From: Ferrimonas marina
Lineage (GTDB): Bacteria > Pseudomonadota > Gammaproteobacteria > Enterobacterales > Shewanellaceae
Reading direction: 5' to 3'
NCBI RefSeq assembly: GCF_900129905.1
Contig: NZ_FQXG01000004.1
Span: 62,001-126,000, forward strand
DNA length: 64,000 bases
Of the stretch, positions 5,991 through 64,000 are shown piece after piece (position 1 is the first letter of the stretch; each line of letters opens with the position of its first letter). The position numbers and the translations under genes are program-made. The notes under the pieces are model-generated. The model saw only the letters and a program-made list of their open reading frames with translations. It ran no database searches and was not told where the DNA came from.

Positions 5991-6061
5991 CCTTCCTCCT
6001 TGGGATTCAACTTAACTCCGTGACGGTTCCAGTGTGCCAGCGCCGGCCACAGAAACAAAGC

Positions 6062-52391: not shown

Positions 52392-53420
52392 TCAACAGAT
52401 CCGGGGCAACTGCTCCCCCACCGGCATCGGCAGCAGACGACTGCCACCGAACAGGCCCACCACCGAGACCTGGCCCGCCGGGGCCGCGGCCACGGTGCCG
52501 ATCACTGCAGCTTCCCGACCCGCTGGGTGGGCCTGCATCGCCGCCAGGATGGCATCGCAATGCTGGGGTGGCACCACCGCAATCAGCTTACCCTCGTTGG
52601 CCATCAGCAGCGGATCCAGCCCCAGGATCTCACTGACCCCGCGTACCTCCGGGTGCAGCGGCAGTGCGGCTTCCTCCAGCTCGATGCTGACCTGGGCCAC
52701 GCTGGCCATCTCGTTGGCCACCGCCGCCACGCCACCGCGGGTGGCATCGCGCAGGGCCCGAACCGGACCCGCCGCCAGCATTGCCTCCACCAGGCCATTG
52801 AGCGGCTGGCAATCGCTTTGCAGCTCACCACTGAGCGCCAGTTCGCCCCGGGCCTGAAGGATCGCCGCGCCGTGATCGCCGACGGTACCAGAGACGATCA
52901 CCCGATCCTCCGGCTGGATATGACGAGCACCGAGCTGACGGTCGCCTGGCACCACGCCGATGCCACTGGTGTTGATGAACAGCTTGTCGCAGGCCCCCCG
53001 GTGCACCACCTTGGTGTCGCCGGTAACGATCTGCACCCCCGCCTCTCGAGCCGTACGGGCCATGGAGGCAACGATGCGCTCCAGGGTTGCCAGCGGCAGC
53101 CCCTCCTCGATGATGAAGCTGCAGGAGAGATAACGGGGGATGGCCCCGGCCATCGCCACGTCATTGACCGTGCCGCACACCGCCAGCTTGCCGATGTCGC
53201 CCCCGGGGAACTCCAGCGGGTCCACCACGAAAGAGTCGGTGGCAAAGGAGAGCCGATCCCCGGCACCGTTCAGCGACGCCAATGGCAGCTGCGCCTGATC
53301 CTCCATCAGGGCCAGCTCGGCGTTATCAAAGGCCGCAACGAAGTATTGCTCAATCAGTTGTTGCATCGCCTGGCCGCCACTACCGTGGGCCAGGGTAATG
53401 CATTCCTCTTCCCTCAACAC
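52392..53420 (-). CDS. hypE: hydrogenase maturation protein HypE
   Basis: This 342-residue AIR-synthase-fold enzyme starts at GTG 53420 (TTG 53417 is also possible). ITLAHGSGGQAMQQLI, TDSFVVDPLEFPGGDIGKLAVCGTVND (in parts) and ANEGKLIAVV are conserved, and it ends in the essential C-terminal Cys (PRIC). HypE turns the carbamoyl group from HypF into cyanide for the Fe(CN)2CO centre. Last gene of the hypABCDE operon; 4 bp after hypD. Confidence 0.96.
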   Translation of the reverse strand: MLREEECITLAHGSGGQAMQQLIEQYFVAAFDNAELALMEDQAQLPLASLNGAGDRLSFATDSFVVDPLEFPGGDIGKLAVCGTVNDVAMAGAIPRYLSCSFIIEEGLPLATLERIVASMARTAREAGVQIVTGDTKVVHRGACDKLFINTSGIGVVPGDRQLGARHIQPEDRVIVSGTVGDHGAAILQARGELALSGELQSDCQPLNGLVEAMLAAGPVRALRDATRGGVAAVANEMASVAQVSIELEEAALPLHPEVRGVSEILGLDPLLMANEGKLIAVVPPQHCDAILAAMQAHPAGREAAVIGTVAAAPAGQVSVVGLFGGSRLLPMPVGEQLPRIC

Positions 53421-53424
53421 AGAT

Positions 53425-54534
53425 TCAGTTCTCCGCTCGATATTGGTAGTAGGCCGCGCAGGCCCCTTCGCTGGACACCATCAAGGCCCCCACCGGGGTC
53501 TGTGGCTGGCAGGCGGTGCCAAACAGGGCACACTGGTTGGGCTTCATCAGTCCACGCAGCACCGCGGCGCAGCCGCAGCCCTCCGGCTCCGCCACACTGC
53601 GTCTATCCAGGCCAAAGCGCCGCTCGGCGTCCCAGGGCGCGAACGCCTCAGTCAGCATCAAACCGGAGTGAGGAATGGACCCAAGGCCACGCCAGTCTGA
53701 CTGGGGTGCGGTCTGAAACACCTCGGCCATCGCCTGCTGGGCCACCGGGTTGCCATCGCTGTGCACAGCCCGTCGGTACTGGTTGTCGATGCGGCTGTCG
53801 CCGTCGGCGATCTGCGCCACCACCATGGCCAGCGCCTGCAGCAGATCCAGCGGCTCGAAGCCGGCGATCACCAATGGCTTGTTGTACTGCTCGGCGATGA
53901 AGTCGTAGACCCGCTCACCGGTGATCATCGACACATGGCCCGGGCCGATAAAGCCGTCGATGCGGATGCCGGGATCGTCCAGGATGGCCCGCAGCGGTGG
54001 GCCGATGGTGATGTGGTGGCACAGCACCGAGAAGTTTTCGATCCCTTCCCGCTTGGCTTGCTGCAGGGTCAGGGCGGTGGCCGGTGCGGTGGTTTCAAAG
54101 CCCAGGGCAAAGAACACCACCTGGCGCTCGGGATGCTGACGTGCCAACGCCAGGGCATCCAACGGTGAGTAGACCACCCGGATATCGGCGCCCCGGGCCT
54201 TGGCGTCCTGCAGGCTGCCCAGATCGCCGGGTACCCGCAGGGCATCGCCATAGGAGCAGAGCATCACATCGTGTTGCTGAGCCAGGGTGATGGCATCATC
54301 GATCCGCCCCCGGGGCAGCACGCACACCGGGCAGCCCGGCCCATGAACAAACTCGATCCCGTCAGGCAGCAGCTGCCCCAGGGCAAACTTGAAGATGGCA
54401 TGGGTGTGACCGCCACACACCTCCATGATCTGCAGCGGTTTGCGGGCCGGGTCGACCCGCTCCAGCTGCTGATGGATCTGGGCCAAGGTGGCCTTGACCG
54501 CCTGGGGGTCACGAAACTCATCAACGAATCTCAT
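53425..54534 (-). CDS. hypD: hydrogenase maturation protein HypD
   Basis: This 369-residue iron-sulphur protein has the active-site regions EVCGGHTHAI and GPGCPVCVLP, GFETTAPATA, GFIGPGHVS, and C-terminal Cys residues (EGCGCAAVLRGL, NQCALFGTACQ) for the 4Fe-4S cluster. It holds the Fe to which CN and CO are added, with HypC. ATG 54534 overlaps the hypC stop (ATGA). Confidence 0.96.
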   Translation of the reverse strand: MRFVDEFRDPQAVKATLAQIHQQLERVDPARKPLQIMEVCGGHTHAIFKFALGQLLPDGIEFVHGPGCPVCVLPRGRIDDAITLAQQHDVMLCSYGDALRVPGDLGSLQDAKARGADIRVVYSPLDALALARQHPERQVVFFALGFETTAPATALTLQQAKREGIENFSVLCHHITIGPPLRAILDDPGIRIDGFIGPGHVSMITGERVYDFIAEQYNKPLVIAGFEPLDLLQALAMVVAQIADGDSRIDNQYRRAVHSDGNPVAQQAMAEVFQTAPQSDWRGLGSIPHSGLMLTEAFAPWDAERRFGLDRRSVAEPEGCGCAAVLRGLMKPNQCALFGTACQPQTPVGALMVSSEGACAAYYQYRAEN

Positions 54535-54809
54535 GCTGTGCCCTCCGGACCCGCCAGATCGGCCAGCTCATGCTCCAGCCCGCCAACGGCCTTGAGTGCC
54601 GCCAGGGTGGCTTCCGCCTCCGCTTCCGACAGCAGCCCCAGGGCAAAACCGACGTGGATCACCGCCCACTGGCCAAGCAACTGCTCGGGCTCTGCAGGCC
54701 AGATGCAGGCCGCGTTGACCTGACGCTGTACCCCGTTGACCGCCACCGTCACGGTCTGGCGCTCAGCGTCATCGATGGATTGGATCTGGGCCGGGATCCC
54801 TAGGCACAT
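54531..54809 (-). CDS. hypC: hydrogenase maturation chaperone HypC
   Basis: This 92-residue protein has the family N-terminus [10 protein letters not shown], with Cys2 binding the Fe(CN)2CO precursor and the hydrogenase large subunit. The rest is a small beta barrel with a helical tail containing [13 protein letters not shown]. The start overlaps the hypB end by 10 bp; the open frame further up is in hypB. A second, shorter HypC is encoded at 57335-57577. Confidence 0.94.
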
Positions 54810-55912
54810 ACCGGTACCCTCTTCGCTACCCACTCCAGCCACTGGGCCATCCCCTCGCCGCTGCGGGCGGAGACCTGGATCACCTCGATATTAGGATTCA
54901 CCCGGCGGGCGTTGTCGATGCAGGCGGCCACATCAAAATCGGTGTGGGGCAACAGGTCGACCTTGTTCAGCAGCATCACGTCCGCCGCGGCAAACATGTC
55001 CGGGTACTTGAGCGGTTTGTCCTCCCCCTCGGTGACCGACAGGATCGCCACCTTGTGGGCCTCGCCCAGGTCAAAGCCCGCCGGGCACACCAGGTTGCCG
55101 ACGTTCTCGATAAACAGGATCCCCGCCTCGTCCAGCGCCAGCTGATCCGCCGCGCGGCCGACCATGGCGGCATCCAGGTGGCAGCCCTTGCCGGTATTCA
55201 CCTGCACCGCAGCGACCCCGGTGGCGCGGATCCGCTCGGCGTCATTGGCGGTTTGCTGATCGCCCTCAATGACCGCCAGGGAGTAGTCCTCCTTGAGCTC
55301 ATCCACGGTGGCGGTGAGAAGGGTGGTCTTGCCGGAGCCCGGGCTGGAGACCAGGTTCAGCACCAGCAGGCACTCCTCGGCAAAGCGCTGTCGATTGACC
55401 GCAGCCAGTCGATCGTTGGCGCCGAGGATATCCTGTTCCACCTGCACCATCTTCTGTTGGCTCATACCCGGGTTGTGGGCGTGGGCCGGCCCCTGACCGT
55501 AATGCAGCTCGCCGTCGTACTCCTCGGGCTCAAACATGGGCAGCTCTGTGCCGGCCAGCTCGGCGTCGGATAGCTCCCTGTGGGATAGCTGGGCCATCAG
55601 TTGATGGGCTTGCTGGGCGCTGGACACATGAAAGTGGTAGTGATGATGGACATCGCCCTGGTGATGGTACTTGTGTACCGTCTTATGCACCGCTTTGGAC
55701 TCGGCGGGCGCAGGGTGGGTATGGTCGTGATGAGCATGGTCGTGATGGTGGTGATCATAGGCATGGTGATGATGTCCATGTTCGTGGTGGTCATGGCCAT
55801 GGTGATGATGCCCATGATCGTGGTGATGATGGCCATGATCATGACCATGCTGGTGAGAATGCTCTCCCTCAATCACCAGATTGCCTTCGGCACAGCCGCA
55901 TACGGTACACAT
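54800..55912 (-). CDS. hypB: hydrogenase nickel-incorporation GTPase HypB with long poly-His region
   Basis: This 370-residue protein has the N-terminal nickel motif MCTVCGC. About 31 His follow in residues 18-66 with Asp and Gly, and nine more lie in 76-95. The GTPase domain (about 165-370) has the P-loop [25 protein letters not shown], the NKVDLL G4-type motif and [10 protein letters not shown]. It stores or delivers Ni2+ with HypA. E. coli HypB lacks such a stretch; long His tracts are known in rhizobial HypB. ATG 55912 is 2 bp after the hypA stop. Confidence 0.96.
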
Positions 55913-55914
55913 GT

Positions 55915-56256
55915 TTACTCTACCTCCAGTGATTTCACGCGCATTTCGCTGCCACCTATCAGGTGCAGCTGGAACCCTCCACAGCGTGGGCATGACTCGC
56001 CCCGCCGTGATAAAGGCACCTCAGAATCGCAATTAAAACAGTGGGCCAGCCCGGGAAGCCGCTCGACGCGCACCTCGGCCCCATCGGCCACGCTGTGCTT
56101 AAACACCGCGTCCAGGCTGAACAACAAAGACTCCAGCTCAACCCCGGCCAGCTCGCCGATCTCAAGCTCGATGGATTTGACGCAGCCGAACGGGGACTGC
56201 GCCCGTTGCTGCTCGACGATGGCCAGAATGCCTTCCGCCAGGGACATTTCGTGCAT
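55915..56256 (-). CDS. hypA: hydrogenase nickel-incorporation protein HypA
   Basis: This 113-residue protein has the start [11 protein letters not shown] (His2 binds nickel), a helical/beta body with [15 protein letters not shown], and the zinc knuckle CFNCDSEV and CPRCGG (CxxC pairs about 16 residues apart). It hands Ni2+ to the large subunit with HypB. The open frame upstream lies in the HupK-like gene, whose stop is 2 bp before this ATG, so the four genes are coupled. Confidence 0.95.
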
Positions 56257-56258
56257 GG

Positions 56259-57170
56259 TTACTCCTGTTGCCACCAGTTGACCGCCACCTCCAGACAGGG
56301 GGCGTAGGCCAGCACCAGCAAAGGGATGATCCCCCGGGCTTGCGCCAGGCTGGCGAAGCGCTGCTGAGCCAGGGTCTGACGCAGGCTGAACAACAGATCG
56401 GTGGAAGGGATCTCGATGTGGTAGGACTGCACCCGCTCTTGTTGCCACTGGGCCTGGTGGCGCAGCTGGCCTCGGGCGGCGCTGACCACACCGGGGCCCA
56501 GCAAGGTGGTGTGGCCACCGGGGTCCTGCAGCCGGGTCAGGGCCTGCTGCATCTCGTTGGCCATGGCCTGAAAGCGCCCGCCCAGGGTGGCTGGGGCCAA
56601 GCGCTGACGGGCCGCGCTGCCGGTCTCCATCGCCTGCACCTCCGCCTCGGGGGTGATACAGGCATGAAACCAATCCCGCTGCTCCAGCTCGGTCAGCAAG
56701 GGGGTTAGGATCTGGGCCAGGAAGGGCACCAGATCCGGATGACGGGGAGGAATGGACAAGGGGGGGACTTTCGCATCAGGCTGCCACAGGGCAGTGGGCA
56801 GCTGGGATTGGCAGCGCTGCAGTGACTGCTGCCAGCGCACCAACGCCTTCAGGCTGGCGTCGCTCTCCCCCAACAGCAGGGTATGGGCCCGGTAGAGCTG
56901 CCAACCGTGCTCCTTGAGCCACTCCAGCCAGACCGCCTGGTCCCGTGCCATCTCGGTGGCGGGATCGAAGCTGGACGACTGCAGGCTGACGGCAGCACGC
57001 AGTTGCGCCTGGCCACACAAACGGTACAGCAAGCCAAGCTGGCGCCGCACCTGCTCGGCGCACAATCCTTCCAGGTGGGGGGCGACGTTGGGCAGGGTCA
57101 GTTGCCACTCCCGCTCGTACACCCGCCCCTCATCCCAACTGAGTAAGAGCCTTGCGGCTGTCAATTCCAT
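56259..57170 (-). CDS. HupK-like hydrogenase accessory protein (decayed large-subunit fold)
   Basis: This 303-residue protein has no membrane helix. YRLCGQAQLRAA (about 49-60) looks like the hydrogenase L1 motif RICGVC-x2-H with the second Cys and His lost. The end APCLEVAV (about 290-297) resembles the L5 motif DPCxxC with one Cys lost. HupK of Rhizobium and Ralstonia is a large-subunit-like scaffold for the Fe(CN)2CO centre and keeps only part of the Cys set. The assignment is from these motifs and context. It is the first gene of the hypABCDE operon. ATG 57170 has AAGGAG about 10 nt upstream. Confidence 0.65.
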   Translation of the reverse strand: MELTAARLLLSWDEGRVYEREWQLTLPNVAPHLEGLCAEQVRRQLGLLYRLCGQAQLRAAVSLQSSSFDPATEMARDQAVWLEWLKEHGWQLYRAHTLLLGESDASLKALVRWQQSLQRCQSQLPTALWQPDAKVPPLSIPPRHPDLVPFLAQILTPLLTELEQRDWFHACITPEAEVQAMETGSAARQRLAPATLGGRFQAMANEMQQALTRLQDPGGHTTLLGPGVVSAARGQLRHQAQWQQERVQSYHIEIPSTDLLFSLRQTLAQQRFASLAQARGIIPLLVLAYAPCLEVAVNWWQQE

Positions 57171-57334: not shown

Positions 57335-57577
57335 TCAGATCTCACCGGCGGCCATCTTGTCGGCGATCTCCCGGTACAGCTCCAGGCTGTCCAGGGCCCG
57401 CTCGCTGTCGATCTTCTCCATGGCAAAGCCGTGACTGACCAGCAGGTAGTCCCCCACCGCCAGATCCGGCCCCAGCAGATGGACACTGACATCACGCTCC
57501 TGCCCCAGGGTTTCCACCCTGGCGATCTGCGCCTCGCTGTCCAGCGACAGCACCTTGGAGGGGATGGCAAAACACAT
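57335..57577 (-). CDS. second HypC/HupF-type hydrogenase chaperone
   Basis: This 80-residue protein starts MCFAIPSKVLSLD (Cys2 conserved) and contains DVSVHLLGPDLAVGDYLLVSHGFAMEKID, matching the HypC/HybG/HupF barrel. It has about 40 percent or less visible similarity to the HypC at 54531. ATG 57577 has GAGGAGG upstream, 10 bp after the stop of the HypF-like gene. Such a second copy is common in operons with HupK, where HupF protects the large subunit during assembly in oxygen. Its identity as HupF rather than HypC is inference. Confidence 0.87.
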   Translation of the reverse strand: MCFAIPSKVLSLDSEAQIARVETLGQERDVSVHLLGPDLAVGDYLLVSHGFAMEKIDSERALDSLELYREIADKMAAGEI

Positions 57578-57587
57578 ACGCCCCTCC

Positions 57588-59273
57588 TCAGGCCACGGCC
57601 GGTTCGGCTCGCGCCACAAACAGCGCACCCAGTGCCAGGCTGGCACCAGCAAAGTCCAGCGGCGCCGGCAGGCGGATCTGCACGTTGCGGTCCAGCCGCC
57701 GATAGAGCCGGTCGAGCAGCACCGGGTTGGCAAACTCGTCACCCGCCAGGATCACCTGCTCCAGGCCGTAGTCGGCATCCAACTGCTCGACCCACTGGCT
57801 GAGGAAGTCGGTGAGCGAATCGACAAAGCCGTAGGCCAAAGCAGAGCTCGACTCCCCGTCCGCCAGGCGGTAGCACAGCAGCGACTGGAACGCCGGGCGC
57901 CAGTCCAGCTGTAGCCCGTCAGGGCCGGGTTTAAGCTTGGCGTCGATCCGTGGTGCCACTGGCGAGCCATGTTGCAGCGCTGCGGCCACCAGGGCGTCGG
58001 CGGCCCGCTGGGGGTCACTGTCCTGGCTCAGGCCAATCAGCCAGGCCGCCATCGCCATCGCATCACGAACGCTGCCGCTGAGTTGGCCGGGTTGCTGATC
58101 TAGCTGTTCAAGCCACTGGGGATGGTGTGTCTTAACCCGCTCCAGCATCCGCTGGGCACTGCTCCCCAGCTCTGCCACCGAGGCCAACCAGGCCGCCGGT
58201 GTCTGCCACTGACGGTCCAGCGACACCAGCCAGCGGTACTCGTTGCCGTCGCGATAGAGCAGGCCCGAAGCCTGGTTTTCACTGAGGAACAGCACGGCAC
58301 TGCGCTTGGGTACCCGGTCCAGTTGCCGGATCCCCTCCAGGGCACAGGCGGCGGGGAGGCAATCGCCGCTGTCTGGCAAGGTGGTTGGGGAGAGTTGCAC
58401 CCGCTCACCATCCCAGTGGGCATGGATCCCCCCCATGCGCGCATCCTGATGCAGCGGCGGGTGAGTCAGCTGGTGACGAAAGCCCGGCAGTGAGAGGGCA
58501 ATGGGCAGGGTATCGCAATGACTCAGTTGCAGGGCTCGTCCCTGACTGCGCATCGCCACCGCCACCACACCGTGTTGGGCCAATCGCTCGGTCAGCGCCA
58601 GGGTGAGGCGATCGTCCGCCAACTGTACCTGATACAGCGCCCGGGCCAGCTGATGCTGCTCGATAAAAGCCTGACGCGGTGCCAGTCGCAGCTGCGGTTT
58701 CTCCAGCCCGGACAGGCATAACTGGCCCACCCGACCGATGTGTAAGGACTCCGCCAGCGCCTTGGGCTGACAGAACAGCAGGGTGTCGTCTTCAATACCG
58801 CTGTGGGCCAGCAGGCGCAATTCACGCCGGCCGTGGCGGGTCTCCAGCAGGGTGTGCCCCTCCAGCAGTAACCCGTCCAGGTGACGCTGGACCCAACGCT
58901 CCAGGCTGTTCTCTCCCTGCAGCCAGTGGTCGTCGCTGCTGCTGTCACAGTGGCGACAGCCTTGCAGAGGCTGATCCTGGCAATGGCGACAATAGGGCAG
59001 GTCCAGCTTGCCCTCGTTCAGCGCCAGGGCGTCACCGTCAAACTGGTCAATCGCCTCAATGCCGCTGTCAATCAGCCAGCAGGAGACCGGGAAGGCGTTG
59101 CCAATCAGTTCCGCCAGCTGAGACAGCTGGGCCTCGTCCCCCTCCGCTTCCAGGGCGTAGCCCCGCTCGGTCTCGGCGATGGTCATCACCAGGGGATGTT
59201 GCAAGAACTGGTTGCACAAGCGGGCGTAGATTGGCACCTGCTGGGCCGTGTTGAAGTTAAACCGCAGCTTCAT
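57588..59273 (-). CDS. divergent HypF-like protein of the hydrogenase operon
   Basis: This 561-residue protein, seen by eye, resembles a shrunken HypF. The N-terminus (1-75) could be a degenerate acylphosphatase-like domain. One short zinc-like motif C95-x2-C98-x7-C106-x2-C109 replaces the two longer HypF fingers. A middle part (about 115-330) is in YrdC-like position. The C-terminal part reads LDWRPAFQSLL, GFVDSLTDFLSQW and VILAGDEFANPVLLDRLYRRL, then an ASLALGAL end. These line up with HypF LSGGVMQN and NDGGLAVGQA, but Gly, His and Asn residues of the active site are changed. Likely inactive as carbamoyltransferase; function unknown. It overlaps hyaD by 17 bp. Confidence 0.7.
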   Translation of the reverse strand: MKLRFNFNTAQQVPIYARLCNQFLQHPLVMTIAETERGYALEAEGDEAQLSQLAELIGNAFPVSCWLIDSGIEAIDQFDGDALALNEGKLDLPYCRHCQDQPLQGCRHCDSSSDDHWLQGENSLERWVQRHLDGLLLEGHTLLETRHGRRELRLLAHSGIEDDTLLFCQPKALAESLHIGRVGQLCLSGLEKPQLRLAPRQAFIEQHQLARALYQVQLADDRLTLALTERLAQHGVVAVAMRSQGRALQLSHCDTLPIALSLPGFRHQLTHPPLHQDARMGGIHAHWDGERVQLSPTTLPDSGDCLPAACALEGIRQLDRVPKRSAVLFLSENQASGLLYRDGNEYRWLVSLDRQWQTPAAWLASVAELGSSAQRMLERVKTHHPQWLEQLDQQPGQLSGSVRDAMAMAAWLIGLSQDSDPQRAADALVAAALQHGSPVAPRIDAKLKPGPDGLQLDWRPAFQSLLCYRLADGESSSALAYGFVDSLTDFLSQWVEQLDADYGLEQVILAGDEFANPVLLDRLYRRLDRNVQIRLPAPLDFAGASLALGALFVARAEPAVA

Positions 59274-59817
59274 GCTTCTCTCCCGCGCAGGACACTGCAG
59301 CCAGTTGTGCGATATCCGGATCCGCCTGTTGCTGGCAGATCAGCCCCAGGGAACTCAGGTGCTGGGCCAGTGCCCGCTCCATCAGGGGCACCGCGGCCCG
59401 GACCTTGTCGGTCAACTCGAAGCTCATCGACTCCAGCACCTCGGGGATCACCCCGAGGATCAGGGTCTGGGGTCGGTCTCCCACCATGTCCATCATGGTG
59501 AGGGTATGCAGCATCTCCACTTCGTGGGCACTGCCTTGGAAATCGATATGGTGGGGCGCAGCATCGAAGTCGAAGAAATAGACATCGCCATGCTGGCCCT
59601 GGGTGGAATGGATGGTGTCCACCACGATCACCTGATCATATTGGGTCATCATCGGGATCAGGGCGTGGGCCAAGGTGCCGCCGTCAACGAACGTCACCTC
59701 GACCGGCCCTTCGATCCGATACTTCTGTTGGAAATAGTGGGCAAAGTGCACGCCGATGCCCTCATCGGCGTACAACACGTTGCCAATCCCAAGAATCAGG
59801 ATCTTTTTCGGCATCAC
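59257..59817 (-). CDS. hyaD: hydrogenase maturation endopeptidase HyaD
   Basis: This 186-residue protease has GIGNVLYADEGIGVH (Glu16 in E. coli numbering), VTFVDGGTL, the Asp of VVDTIHS and a His in SAHEVEML, the three nickel-sensing ligands. It cuts the C-terminal tail of HyaB after the conserved His once Ni is inserted. It overlaps hyaC by 4 bp. Confidence 0.94.
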   Translation of the reverse strand: MMPKKILILGIGNVLYADEGIGVHFAHYFQQKYRIEGPVEVTFVDGGTLAHALIPMMTQYDQVIVVDTIHSTQGQHGDVYFFDFDAAPHHIDFQGSAHEVEMLHTLTMMDMVGDRPQTLILGVIPEVLESMSFELTDKVRAAVPLMERALAQHLSSLGLICQQQADPDIAQLAAVSCAGEKHEAAV

Positions 59818-60482
59818 TTCTCTTCTACTTTATGGGTGTCATAACCGGACACGATGGTGTCCATCGAGCTCTTGAACCACACCGCACTCCACATCGCCAT
59901 GTAGACGTGGATCGGCAGGAAGATGATGAACACCCAGGTCAACCAGTGGTGGATCTCCCGCACCGGGGCCAGGCCACCGAACAGCGCGGTGCCCCACTCT
60001 GCCAGCGGGTAGATCAGACCTCCCAAGCCCTCGTGGTAGACATTGGCGTGCAAAATCAAACCGGTAATGCACATCAAGGCGGCCACCACACTGACCATCA
60101 GGTAGCTGACAAATTGCAGCGGTCCGTAGACCCCCTGCTTGTGCAGCTTGCCATGCCACAGGTAGGACTTAAGGTTGATGACCCAACTGCGCGGACTGAT
60201 CACATCCCGGTAGGAGCGACGCTCAATGTTGCTCCGGCTAAAGAAGAACAGGTAAGCCCGGTACAGGGTCACCGCACAGAGCACGAAGCCCGCCACCAGG
60301 TGGGCAAAGCGCACCCAGCCCTGCTGCAGGTTATCCGTGCCGCCGTAGGGCGTCAGGAAGGGCCAGGCGATGTAGAAGCCGGTTACCACCAGCACCACGA
60401 TGCTGATGGCCCGTAGCCAATGCCCCCACATGATGGCGGGACCAAAGATCTTGTCCCGGGTATACAAAGGCGAATCAGACAT
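59814..60482 (-). CDS. hyaC: NiFe hydrogenase b-type cytochrome subunit HyaC
   Basis: This 222-residue membrane protein has four helices. GPAIMWGHWLRAISIVVLVVTGFYIAWPF and VRFAHLVAGFVLCAVTLYRAYLFF provide His ligands for two b-type hemes. MCITGLILHANVYHE and HHWLTWVFIIFLPIHVYMAMW supply the others. It passes electrons from the hydrogenase small subunit to the quinone pool. It is 12 bp after hyaB, in the same operon. Confidence 0.94.
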   Translation of the reverse strand: MSDSPLYTRDKIFGPAIMWGHWLRAISIVVLVVTGFYIAWPFLTPYGGTDNLQQGWVRFAHLVAGFVLCAVTLYRAYLFFFSRSNIERRSYRDVISPRSWVINLKSYLWHGKLHKQGVYGPLQFVSYLMVSVVAALMCITGLILHANVYHEGLGGLIYPLAEWGTALFGGLAPVREIHHWLTWVFIIFLPIHVYMAMWSAVWFKSSMDTIVSGYDTHKVEEK

Positions 60483-60493
60483 GCTTCCCCTCC

Positions 60494-62197
60494 TTAGGCG
60501 CTTGCCGCACCCACTTGGAATTGGCCCAGATCCGTACCCTTGTAATCCATCACATGCACCGCACAGGCCATGCAGGGGTCAAAGGAGTGGATCACCCGGA
60601 TCACCTCCAGCGGCTTGGTGGGATCCTCGAGCTTGATGCCGATCAGCGACTTCTCGTAGGGCCCCTTCTTGCCGTTGGCGTCCTCCGGACCGGAGTTCCA
60701 GGTGGTGGGCACCACCGCCTGGTAGTTCTCCACCTTGCCGCCCTTGATCCGCACCCAGTGCGACAGCATGCCCCGTGGCGCCTCGATCATGGAGTGACCG
60801 ACGTACTCAACGTCGTTGCGCATGCCCGGATCGATGAAGGTCTCCTCATCCACCAGGATGTTGTCCACCAGCGCATCGAAGGTCTCCAGTGCCGCGTCGG
60901 CCACCAAAATGGTTTGCAGCAGACGCGCCGCGGTGCGGCCTAAGGTGGTGAACAGCGCCTCGATGGGCAACCCGGTGGCGGCCAGCAAGCCGTCGACCGC
61001 TTCGACCACCCGCTTGTTGCCCTTGGCGTAGTTCACCAGCAGGCAGGCCAGCGGGCCCACTTCCACCGGTTCGCCGTTATAACGGGGCGATTTCACCCAG
61101 GTGTACTTGCCATCGCCATCAACGGTGGGCAGCTCGCCATACACGGTGTCACGCTTGGTGAAGCCGGTGTAGTTGGGCTTGGTCTCGCCGTCGTAGGGGT
61201 GCAGTGCCGGGCCATCCTCGTACCAGGCGTGACTGACGTCTTCTTTGATCAGGTCCGGGTTGATGTCGCTGACCCCGGCCAGATCGCCGTTGATGATCAC
61301 ACCACCCTCGAACAGGTACTGACCCCGCCCCAGGGCAAAGTCCTGGCACGCCAGGAAGCTGTTGACGCCCACGCCCTTGAGCACGGAGTCTTCCCCTTTG
61401 TACTGGGCCGCCGCCATCAGCACGTCCGGCAGGTAGGCACGCTGGATGAAGTCGTTCACCTCGGCGTGTTTCTGTTTCCACTGCTGCAACCGCGCCGGGC
61501 TGAGCATGTCGCGGACACAGGTAACACCGCCCACCACCAGCGACTGCGGGTGTGGTTGCTTGCCACCGAAGATGGCCAGCATCTCCGCCGCCACCCGCTG
61601 CACTTCCAGCGCCTTGAGATAGTGAGATACCGCAATCAGGTTCTGCTCCGGGGTCAGCTGGTAGGTACCGTTGCCCCAGTAAGCGTTGGCAAAGGGACCC
61701 AGCTTGCCGGAGGCAACCAGCTTGGCCACCCGCTCCTGCACCGCGCGCAAGTCCCCCTCGCCGGCGGCGATGGGTTTGTCGGTCCACTTCATCGCCTCCT
61801 GGGCCGCAGCGGCAGGATCGGCAGAGAGCGCCGACACCACGTCCACCCAGTCCAGCGCGTGCAGGTGGTAGAAGTGCACCACGTGGTCGTGCATGTAGAG
61901 CGAGGCCTGCATGATGGAACGCAGCAGCTCGGCGTTATAGGGGATCTGCACCTTAAGGGCATCCTCCACCGCTTCGATGCCGGCCCGGTAGTGGGAGTAG
62001 GTGCACACCCCGCAGATCCGCTGGGTCAGCAGACCGGCGTCCATCGGGCTGCGCCCCTTCATGATCACCTCAATGCCGCGCCACAGGGTGGAAGAGGACC
62101 AGGCATTAGTGATCACATTGTTCTCATCCACCTCCACTTCCACCCGCAGGTGGCCCTCGATACGGGTAATGGGGTCTACAACAACACGTTTACTCAT
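60494..62197 (-). CDS. hyaB: NiFe hydrogenase large subunit HyaB
   Basis: This 567-residue protein has the N-terminal ITRIEGHLRVEVEVDENN, the L1 motif RICGVC (C62, C65) with TYSHYRAG after it, and the L5 motif DPCMACAVH (about 540-548). A 19-residue tail, VMDYKGTDLGQF and on, is removed by HyaD. The four Cys hold the Ni-Fe centre. It oxidises H2 in the periplasm, exported with HyaA by Tat. ATG 62197 overlaps the hyaA stop (ATGA). Confidence 0.97.
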   Translation of the reverse strand: MSKRVVVDPITRIEGHLRVEVEVDENNVITNAWSSSTLWRGIEVIMKGRSPMDAGLLTQRICGVCTYSHYRAGIEAVEDALKVQIPYNAELLRSIMQASLYMHDHVVHFYHLHALDWVDVVSALSADPAAAAQEAMKWTDKPIAAGEGDLRAVQERVAKLVASGKLGPFANAYWGNGTYQLTPEQNLIAVSHYLKALEVQRVAAEMLAIFGGKQPHPQSLVVGGVTCVRDMLSPARLQQWKQKHAEVNDFIQRAYLPDVLMAAAQYKGEDSVLKGVGVNSFLACQDFALGRGQYLFEGGVIINGDLAGVSDINPDLIKEDVSHAWYEDGPALHPYDGETKPNYTGFTKRDTVYGELPTVDGDGKYTWVKSPRYNGEPVEVGPLACLLVNYAKGNKRVVEAVDGLLAATGLPIEALFTTLGRTAARLLQTILVADAALETFDALVDNILVDEETFIDPGMRNDVEYVGHSMIEAPRGMLSHWVRIKGGKVENYQAVVPTTWNSGPEDANGKKGPYEKSLIGIKLEDPTKPLEVIRVIHSFDPCMACAVHVMDYKGTDLGQFQVGAASA

Positions 62198-63339
62198 GAC
62201 TCATCCTCTTTCTTCTTGTTCATGAACGCCGTGGTGACGGCGTGGGCACCGATACCGGCGACGGTCACCCCCAAAATGGTGGCGCCAATGGCGTCGGCGG
62301 TCATATCCAGGCTGTGGATCTCGCGCCGACCCAGCGGCTTTTCAAAGTCCGCCATGGTGTCCCAGAAGTGAGGCTCGGAGCAGCCCATGCAGCCGTGACC
62401 GGCCAGCACCGGCCAACTGGTGTGGTGGTTAAACCGCTCGGTGGGGCAGTTGTTGTAGGTGTAGGGGCCTTTGCAGCCCACCTTGTAGAGGCAGTAGCCC
62501 TCTTTGGCGCCGGCGTCGCCGAAGGTCTCGACAAACTCACCGGCGTCGAACCGACCGCGACGTTCGCAGTTGTCATGCACCCGGGCACCGTAGGCCCAGC
62601 GCGGACGGTTGAACATGTCCAGCGGCGGCAGCTTGCCGAACATGATGAAGTACATCAGGGTACCGACGATGTTCTTCTCCGAGGGCGGACAGCCGCCCAG
62701 GTTGACCACCGGCTTGTTGGTCACCTCCATCACCGCACGGGCCTCGGTCGGGTTCGGCTTGGCGGCCTGGACGCCACCAAAGGCAGCACAGGTACCCACC
62801 GACACGATGGCAGCAGCCCCTTCGGCGCACTCATCGATGATCTGCATGCCGGTGTGGCCCTTGCAGCCCACGGTCAGGAAGGCACCGTTGTTGGCGGTGG
62901 GCACGGCGCCCTCAACCGCCAGCACGTACTGGCCCTTGTAGGCCTTGAGGGCGTGCTCCAGGTTCTCCTCCGCCTGCCAGCCAGAGGCCGCCATCAGGGT
63001 TTCGTGATACTCGAGAGAGATATGGTCGAAGATCAGGGTATCGACGGTGGGGGTATCGGCGCGGATCAGCGATTCCGAGCAACCGGTGCATTCGGCCATG
63101 TGCAGCCAGATCAGCGGCACCCGGTTGGCCAGTTCGGCGGCTTCCGCCACCATGGGGGCAAACTGCATCGGCAGTGCCAGTACCGTGGCCGTCGTGGCGC
63201 TCCATTTCATGAAGTCGCGGCGGGAGATCCCCTGGGCTTCCATGCTGTCACGCAGTGAGGCCTGTTTCAGCGGGGGCTGTTCGGCCAGGCTATCCAGCCG
63301 CTGGCGGCATTGCGCCAGTAACGCATCGTATTTGTTCAC
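62194..63339 (-). CDS. hyaA: NiFe hydrogenase small subunit HyaA
   Basis: This 381-residue protein starts at GTG 63339, which has GGAGG 7 nt upstream. A 38-residue extension precedes the Tat motif SRRDFMKW (39-46). The proximal cluster region reads ECTGCSES (C84, C87) and GTCAAFGG, and the other clusters lie in HDNCERRGRFDAGEF, YCLYKVGCKGP and NNCPTE. The extra Cys of oxygen-tolerant enzymes are absent. A C-terminal helix (about 345-370) anchors it to HyaC. It delivers electrons from HyaB. Confidence 0.96.
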   Translation of the reverse strand: MNKYDALLAQCRQRLDSLAEQPPLKQASLRDSMEAQGISRRDFMKWSATTATVLALPMQFAPMVAEAAELANRVPLIWLHMAECTGCSESLIRADTPTVDTLIFDHISLEYHETLMAASGWQAEENLEHALKAYKGQYVLAVEGAVPTANNGAFLTVGCKGHTGMQIIDECAEGAAAIVSVGTCAAFGGVQAAKPNPTEARAVMEVTNKPVVNLGGCPPSEKNIVGTLMYFIMFGKLPPLDMFNRPRWAYGARVHDNCERRGRFDAGEFVETFGDAGAKEGYCLYKVGCKGPYTYNNCPTERFNHHTSWPVLAGHGCMGCSEPHFWDTMADFEKPLGRREIHSLDMTADAIGATILGVTVAGIGAHAVTTAFMNKKKEDES

Positions 63340-63734: not shown

Positions 63735-64000
63735 TTACGATTTTTGTGAAGCCGCCTCGATCGCCGCCTGTCCCACCGCCAGGCCACCGTCGTTGGCAGG
63801 CACCTGACGATGCCACAGCAGGGTCAGGCCACTGCCGCGCAACTGGTCCTCCAGCAGGGTCTGCAGCAGGGCGTTTTGCATCACCCCTCCGCTGAACAGC
63901 AGGTGTTCAATGCCATGGGCCCGGGCGTGGTAGACCGCCACCGCCGCCAGTTCGTTGGCCAGCAAAACGTGGAACTGGAACGCCAGATCCGCCCTGCTGC
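63735..64000 (-). CDS. hypF: carbamoyltransferase HypF, C-terminal end (partial)
   Basis: The frame runs off the window end; about 88 C-terminal residues are present. They read LAFQFHVLLANEL, HLLFSGGVMQNALLQTLL and VPANDGGLAVGQA, the Kae1-like end of HypF with intact FSGGVMQN and NDGG motifs. HypF makes the carbamoyl group that becomes CN in the NiFe centre. It is transcribed in the same direction as hya and hyp. Confidence 0.93.
   Translation of the reverse strand, partial: SRADLAFQFHVLLANELAAVAVYHARAHGIEHLLFSGGVMQNALLQTLLEDQLRGSGLTLLWHRQVPANDGGLAVGQAAIEAASQKS

What the first reader, a model, noticed from the sequence alone, without database searches (positions are those of the whole stretch)
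57588..59273. Degenerate HypF-like protein inside a hydrogenase operon that also has true HypF
Seen: a 561-residue protein with one short zinc-type motif (C-x2-C-x7-C-x2-C) and a C-terminal half aligning with the HypF end, where LSGGVMQN becomes LAGDEFAN and NDGG becomes DFAG. The true HypF end, with intact motifs, lies at 63735-64000. Known: HypF is an acylphosphatase, zinc-finger, YrdC, Kae1-like enzyme. Inference: this is a pseudo-enzyme paralogue that may scaffold maturation, not a second carbamoyltransferase.
Basis: partly seen in the sequence, partly recalled or inferred. Interest (0 to 1): 0.7.

Follow-up and report, generated by a model that had tools for sequence, protein, structure and literature searches.

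The report
Degenerate HypF relative beside a hydrogenase
Next to the genes of a hydrogen-using enzyme this marine bacterium keeps, besides the maturation enzyme HypF, a shrunken relative of HypF that has lost HypF's working residues yet is preserved by selection, so it is probably a helper for assembling the enzyme, which may explain the poorly understood gene hydE.

Summary
The 561-aa protein on the minus strand at 57588-59273 is a degenerate relative of HypF. Evidence: Pfam HypF_C_2 E 1.3e-9; profile comparison with 13 HypFs, E 4.7e-11; an AlphaFold2 model (pLDDT 89.6) whose nine best PDB matches are HypF entries. Of 112 columns invariant in 13 HypFs it keeps 15, four of them the zinc cysteines. 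It is not decay: dN/dS is 0.05-0.20 in 8 of 9 pairs, one unmeasurable. Matches to it, to HypF and to the hydrogenase large subunit fall in the same 119 of 146 family genomes. It follows hydA-B-C-D in 77 of 77 loci. Relatives in hydrogenase operons of two Campylobacterota keep both HypF fingers. I conclude it is a HydE-type pseudo-HypF, probably a non-catalytic assembly factor of the HydABC hydrogenase. H. pylori hydE is reported necessary for hydrogenase activity, function unknown (PMC7695850 passages); its sequence could not be reached.

The parts
57588..59273 (-). HydE-type pseudo-HypF, 561 aa; overlaps the end of the protease gene by 17 bases
59046..59273 (-). Residues 1-76: acylphosphatase-like beta-alpha-beta-beta-alpha-beta domain; HypF VQGVGFR arginine and conserved asparagine absent
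   Evidence: secondary structure of the AF2 model; MAFFT alignment; profile bridge through Campylobacterota relatives only from residue 46 on
58947..58991 (-). Residues 95-109: C4 zinc finger equivalent to HypF finger 2 (HypF C173, C176, C195, C198), loop shortened; finger 1 absent
   Evidence: four cysteines in 18 of 18 rows of A1 (window included) and in both Campylobacterota relatives
58494..58916 (-). Residues about 120-260: YrdC-like remnant; HypF K-x-R and SxN positions changed, E-K-P kept
57609..58376 (-). Residues about 300-555: Kae1-like part without the HHxAH histidines and NDGG
57807..57821 (-). D485-S486-x2-D489: S486 and D489 in 20 of 20 HydE-type rows; in HypF S in 2 and D in 1 of 13
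57726..57749 (-). LAGDEFAN, where HypF has FSGGVMQN
62194..63339 (-). hydrogenase small subunit (HydA) with Tat signal match
60494..62197 (-). [NiFe] hydrogenase large subunit (HydB)
59814..60482 (-). b-type cytochrome subunit (HydC)
   Evidence: TIGR02125 E 9.4e-65
59257..59817 (-). HyaD/HupD-type maturation protease (HydD)
   Evidence: TIGR00140 E 3.4e-44 (150.4 bits, just under its cut-off of 151.8); Pfam HycI E 1.3e-25
57335..57577 (-). first HypC/HupF-type chaperone, 80 aa
56259..57170 (-). 303-aa protein weakly resembling the C-terminal part of the large subunit; HupK-like by position
63735..64000 (-). C-terminal end of the intact HypF (774 aa, runs out of the window)
52392..56256 (-). 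hypE, hypD, second hypC, hypB, hypA

Best explanation
The protein is a HydE-type pseudo-HypF. It descends from an old duplication of HypF, has lost the residues of the acylphosphatase, YrdC and Kae1 active sites, and is kept as an accessory factor of the membrane-bound, Tat-exported HydABC uptake hydrogenase. Shown here: HypF ancestry, loss of HypF-type residues, a preserved fold (as a prediction), company with HydABC and HypF, and purifying selection. Inferred: it does not make carbamoyl-adenylate, but uses the inherited HypF-like surface and its zinc finger to dock on maturation partners (HypE, the HypC-HypD complex, or the immature large subunit HydB). There it would act as a scaffold or chaperone between cofactor insertion, C-terminal cleavage by HydD and joining with HydA and HydC before export.
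For: HypF homology. Two-step bridge: A1 versus two Campylobacterota relatives E 7.7e-22, these versus HypF E 1.6e-23 over 596 columns; direct tblastn of the window protein on the Sulfurimonas gene E 8.6e-10 in a search of that one locus. Fold. Residue loss: 15 of 112 HypF-invariant columns kept, 4 of them zinc cysteines. HydE-type proteins are one clade apart from HypF, support 100/100. Matches to HydE (E 1e-5), HypF and HydB (both E 1e-50) in the same 119 of 146 genomes (handle lists compared by eye). HydA-B-C-D precede it in 77 of 77 loci, the estimated gap from HydD being 66 bases or less in 76 of 77. dN/dS 0.05-0.20 in 8 of 9 pairs. H. pylori hydE mutants are said to lose hydrogenase activity, not rescued by nickel, with normal urease (passages of PMC7695850, citing Benoit 2004, which I did not see).
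Against: No binding or activity data exist here; scaffold is one of several non-catalytic roles. Identity with H. pylori HydE rests on gene order and on Sulfurovum/Sulfurimonas relatives, not on the H. pylori sequence. The Pfam match is uneven: of 6 relatives scanned only 2 pass the HypF_C_2 cut-off, and both Campylobacterota proteins do not. Other hydrogenase loci (Parabacteroides, Sulfobacillus, Aeromonas, Bradyrhizobium, Alteromonas; stretches L142-L146) show no HydE by tblastn beyond HypF finger matches and hits above E 0.09, so the factor is not general. The large-subunit tree does not unite the HydE-bearing hydrogenases (2 changes; one origin in 0% of bootstraps; Sulfobacillus falls among them on a long branch). 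New conserved residues could mean a new activity rather than none.
Confidence: 0.72

Rival explanations
1. A second, still active HypF (carbamoyltransferase) dedicated to this hydrogenase.
For: HypF entries are the best fold matches; one zinc finger kept.
Against: HypF-invariant columns kept by the window protein: 2 of 14 in the acylphosphatase part, 3 of 29 in YrdC, 6 of 41 in Kae1; in it the arginine, asparagine, K-x-R, SxN, HHxAH and NDGG positions are all changed (among the 18 rows a few such columns match in 2-5 rows, S343 for instance in 5). No NCBIfam match up to E 1, hypF included. In the 146-genome sample it never occurs without a HypF match.
Confidence: 0.04
2. A neofunctionalised enzyme: the old sites are gone but residues gained by the HydE clade (such as E191, D444, S486, D489) form a new active site used in hydrogenase maturation.
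For: These residues stand in 18 of 18 rows of A1 and in both Campylobacterota relatives, but in only 1, 0, 2 and 1 of 13 HypFs.
Against: Few shared conserved positions for an enzyme (18 columns in both groups, five of them the start Met and zinc cysteines); identities of 25-47% to the window protein suit a binding protein better.
Confidence: 0.1
3. A regulator or sink that binds HypE or HypF non-productively and tunes cyanide-ligand supply.
For: Best PDB match is chain A of the HypE-HypF complex entry, of HypF length; pseudo-enzymes often regulate their active paralogue (general knowledge).
Against: The gene lies with the structural genes, right after the protease, and H. pylori hydE loss is said to abolish activity (PMC7695850 passage), which suits a positive factor.
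Confidence: 0.1
4. A decaying pseudogene copy of hypF.
For: Loss of catalytic-type motifs; in two genomes (G475, G507) the matches lie in two shorter open frames.
Against: No stop inside any of the listed matches, dN/dS 0.05-0.20 in 8 of 9 pairs, confident fold.
Confidence: 0.01

Closest known systems
HypF (carbamoyl-HypE ligase; PDB 3vti, 3vth, 4g9i, 3tsp)
   Same: Domain order and predicted fold; zinc finger 2 cysteines; G511, L519 and G549 of the Kae1-like end, columns invariant in HypF
   Different: 561 instead of 774 aa; finger 1 absent; 97 of 112 HypF-invariant columns changed or missing; found beside a HypF match in all 119 sampled genomes that have it
HydE of the NiFe hydABCDE operon (H. 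pylori HP0635; a Wolinella HydE is recalled, not seen; not the radical-SAM HydE of [FeFe]-hydrogenase)
   Same: Gene after hydA, B, C, D of a membrane-bound uptake hydrogenase; H. pylori gene needed for activity, function unknown (PMC7695850 passages)
   Different: Sequence relationship to HP0635 itself untested here; [quoted passage not shown]
Hypothetical proteins on Sulfurovum mangrovi and Sulfurimonas paralvinellae hydrogenase plasmids (641 aa)
   Same: Homologous over 492 columns; directly after the protease (Sulfurovum) or after cytochrome b (Sulfurimonas), hypF nearby
   Different: Keep both HypF zinc fingers (Pfam zf-HYPF E 8.8e-14 and 6.7e-15, two stretches each); weak HypF_C_2 scores (16.0 and 21.7 bits)
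HupK/HoxV and HupF of aerobic hydrogenase clusters
   Same: Accessory factors; HupK shares cysteine motifs with the large subunit and was proposed as a scaffold (PMC3534401 passages)
   Different: Related to the large subunit, not to HypF; a HupK-like candidate stands in this same operon

Membership tests
HypF | Acylphosphatase signature V-Q-G-V-G-F-R and conserved Asn | tested here: not met
   HypF R35 and N53 columns 0 of 18 rows
HypF | Two C4 zinc fingers | tested here: not met
   one finger; no zf-HYPF match up to E 1
HypF | YrdC nucleotide-site residues (K-x-R, TSxN; motif roles recalled) | tested here: not met
   changed in the window protein
HypF | Kae1-like histidines HHxAH and C-terminal NDGG (roles recalled) | tested here: not met
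   changed in the window protein; H498 0 of 18, D757 0 of 18 rows
HypF | TIGR00143 hypF equivalog | tested here: not met
   no match up to E 1
HypF | HypF fold and domain order | tested here: met
   predicted model, nine best PDB hits are HypF entries, 3vti_A E 2.4e-17, TM 0.69 by query length, rmsd 7.5 A
HydE of NiFe hydABCDE | Gene after hydABCD of a Tat-exported, cytochrome-b-linked hydrogenase | tested here: met
HydE of NiFe hydABCDE | Sequence homology to a Campylobacterota gene in such an operon | tested here: met
   Sulfurovum and Sulfurimonas
HydE of NiFe hydABCDE | Sequence homology to H. pylori HP0635 | not tested
   no such sequence in the collections reached
HydE of NiFe hydABCDE | Required for hydrogenase activity | not testable with these tools
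   bench work

The most novel reading that the evidence does not exclude
HydE is not merely dead HypF: its clade-specific residues (such as D444, S486, D489) and zinc finger form a new site on the old carbamoyltransferase fold that carries out, or carries an intermediate for, a step of cofactor assembly not covered by HypA-F in these bacteria, for instance holding the Fe(CN)2CO precursor or handling the CO ligand, whose anaerobic source is described as unresolved (PMC12134894 passages).
Probability: 0.07. Interest if true: 0.85.

Novelty: new variant of a known kind. Interest (0 to 1): 0.5.

Why it matters
The papers whose passages I read call the function of H. pylori hydE unknown or not fully understood. 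If the gene is a pseudo-HypF, that turns the gap into concrete tests (partners HypE, HypC-HypD, HydB; zinc finger; lost active sites). It would also be a second case, beside HupK, of hydrogenase maturation reusing a degenerate relative of one of its own proteins as a helper.

Tried and rejected
Second active HypF: rejected on residue loss and co-occurrence. Pseudogene: rejected on selection and open frames. Chance similarity: rejected by Pfam, profile-profile and fold comparison. Recent duplicate of a neighbouring HypF: disfavoured, the HydE-type proteins form one clade (100/100), and holding Campylobacterota HydE together with the Sulfurimonas HypF is rejected (p-AU 3.75e-8); the program warned of long branches and of odd letter make-up in 10 of 32 rows. 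One origin of HydE with its hydrogenase: not supported by the large-subunit tree (15 rows: the window, 8 of the 77 loci, 2 Campylobacterota and 4 others picked by me): HydE-bearing rows need 2 changes and are one side of a branch in 0% of bootstraps; few rows and a long Sulfobacillus branch, so left open. Of 40 listed plasmid hits I fetched 7 and used 6 in that tree; Alteromonas was left out because its match was in two pieces. PDB profile search gave only weak HypF hits (best 3vth E 0.053). Plasmid tblastn with the window protein found nothing at E 1e-5; a viral-contig scan with the Campylobacterota pair found no relative. AlphaFold2 of HypF without an alignment failed (pLDDT 34) and was not used. 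A1 holds 18 rows: the window and 17 chosen from the HydE-type loci; A2 holds the own HypF (from L012) and 12 of the other 14 loci (two partial ones left out). One search used 13 of the 18 rows of A1, one Photobacterium and two Campylobacterota proteins, and 16 HypFs. In one search one row (L049) shows HypF in place of HydE, an effect of my greedy placement: one search finds HydE there from base 6001.

Full report
What is there. On the minus strand, 57588-59273 encodes a 561-aa protein. It sits in a run of genes read in one direction: HypF (774 aa, ending at 63735), small subunit, large subunit, cytochrome b, HyaD-type protease, this gene, a HypC-type chaperone, a 303-aa protein, hypA, hypB, a second hypC, hypD and hypE. 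I call the family Shewanellaceae; that label is recalled.

Homology to HypF. Pfam HypF_C_2 matches residues 355-535 at E 1.3e-9, above the curated cut-off; NCBIfam gives nothing up to E 1. Of 6 relatives scanned, 2 pass the HypF_C_2 cut-off. A profile of 18 rows (A1) against 13 HypFs (A2) aligns from the zinc finger to the end, probability 97.1, E 4.7e-11. Further support comes from two Campylobacterota plasmids: 641-aa hypothetical proteins in the hydrogenase operons of Sulfurovum mangrovi (after the protease) and Sulfurimonas paralvinellae (after cytochrome b), with hypF nearby. They match zf-HYPF clearly, match A1 at E 7.7e-22 over 492 columns from residue 46 of the window protein on, and match HypF at E 1.6e-23 over 596 columns beginning in the acylphosphatase part. 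That profile holds only two sequences. Direct tblastn of the window protein on the Sulfurimonas gene gives E 8.6e-10 within that locus; on the Sulfurovum stretch it gives nothing better than E 0.41, outside the gene. Residues 1-45 are tied to HypF only by predicted secondary structure and the MAFFT alignment.

Structure. AlphaFold2 with A1 gave mean pLDDT 89.6 and pTM 0.88; residues 1-76 form beta-alpha-beta-beta-alpha-beta. Foldseek against the PDB ranks nine HypF chains first: 3vti_A (HypE-HypF complex, E 2.4e-17, TM-score 0.69 by query length), 3vth, 4g9i and E. coli HypF; TsaD/Kae1 proteins follow. rmsd values are large (7-11 A), as domains may sit differently.

What was lost. Of 112 columns invariant in the 13 HypFs the window protein keeps 2 of 14 (acylphosphatase), 0 of 12 (finger 1), 4 of 16 (finger 2, exactly the cysteines), 3 of 29 (YrdC) and 6 of 41 (Kae1). 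The finger-1 cysteines are absent in all 18 rows of A1 and present in both Campylobacterota relatives. The short C-x2-C-x7-C-x2-C is a shortened finger 2; the Shewanella rows of A1 keep a longer loop. Columns shared by 17 or more of 18 rows and by both Campylobacterota number 18 of 47. Among them D444, S486, D489 and E191 occur in 0, 2, 1 and 1 of 13 HypFs.

Not decay, and not alone. dN/dS was 0.053-0.202 in 8 of 9 pairs; the ninth had no usable dS. In 146 genomes of the family, 119 have a HydE match (cut-off E 1e-5; every best match at 2.7e-19 or better), 119 a HypF match and 119 a HydB match (cut-off E 1e-50 each). The matched handles and the 20 listed unmatched ones are the same in the three calls, compared by eye; 7 unmatched genomes are not listed. 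Of 274 genomes of the class, 4 matched: the window's own, and 3 whose match lies in open frames of 776-841 aa, the length of HypF; this sample missed Photobacterium, which does have the gene. A scan of genome contigs with A1 gave 77 loci, in Ferrimonas, Paraferrimonas, Shewanella, Photobacterium and one record labelled Marinobacter. HydA-HydB-HydC-HydD precede the gene in 77 of 77; the estimated HydD-HydE gap is 66 bases or less in 76 of 77 and 502 in one. HypF lies in the fetched stretch in 60 of 77, some stretches ending early. HydE identities to the window protein are 25-47%, HydB identities 66-87%, so HydE changes fast.

History. In a tree of 16 HydE-type and 16 HypF proteins the two kinds separate with support 100/100; the branch is long and the program warns of long-branch effects. 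The large-subunit tree of 15 rows does not unite the HydE-bearing hydrogenases, so one transfer or one origin of the whole operon is not shown. Stretches around other hydrogenases (L142-L146) show no HydE by tblastn beyond HypF finger matches and hits above E 0.09.

What it does. Nothing here shows a function directly. Gene order and co-occurrence tie it to HydABC. In H. pylori, hydABCDE is the hydrogenase operon; hydE mutants are described as lacking hydrogenase activity, not rescued by nickel, with normal urease and unknown HydE function (passages of PMC7695850). [quoted passage not shown] All three cite Benoit 2004, which I did not see. My reading is a non-catalytic assembly factor using the HypF-like surface, confidence 0.72 for the whole statement; HypF ancestry alone I hold at about 0.97, loss of carbamoyltransferase activity at about 0.93. 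Nine literature searches in the open PMC library listed no paper whose title or abstract start describes this HydE as a HypF relative, nor did the passages I read; papers outside that library, the original Helicobacter work included, were not available.

Context. The operon also has the HupF-HupK-HypC order described for aerobic hydrogenase systems (passages of PMC3534401): two HypC-type genes flanking a 303-aa protein whose C-terminal part aligns weakly with the large subunit (hhalign E 0.00029, probability 40). That protein was found in 5 of the 77 fetched stretches (Ferrimonas, Paraferrimonas and the Marinobacter-labelled record), in none of the Shewanella or Photobacterium ones at E 1e-4.

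Noticed in passing
56259-57170 (-): 303-aa protein between two HypC-type genes; its end resembles the large-subunit C-terminus with one cysteine of the metal-ligand pair missing (weak, probability 40): HupK-like candidate, a second degenerate relative in the same operon.
   Followed up: partly
54800-55993 (-): HypB has a very long histidine-rich stretch between its N-terminus and the GTPase domain, of the kind seen in nickel-storing HypB proteins (comparison recalled).
   Followed up: no
63735-64000 and L012:6736-9060: hypF lies upstream of the small-subunit gene here, but downstream of HydE in Ferrimonas balearica (L043, L044) and in many Shewanella loci: the gene has moved within the cluster.
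   Followed up: partly
L042: Record labelled Marinobacter nauticus DP3N21-5 has the Ferrimonas gene order and the coordinates of genome G385, which the genome search lists as same genus as the window: probably a mislabelled Ferrimonas.
   Followed up: partly
G475, G507: HydE matches lie in two shorter open frames in these two genomes; assembly error or broken gene not decided.
   Followed up: no
G382, G395, G404, G407, G414, G424, G508: A second large-subunit gene, 68-77% identical to the window's, is present but only one HydE match was counted.
   Followed up: no
L012:9263-13156: Directly beyond hypF, on the opposite strand, lie an 820-aa frame that reads like a Tat-exported molybdopterin oxidoreductase, a ferredoxin-like frame and a TorD/DmsD-like frame (by reading, not searched).
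   Followed up: no
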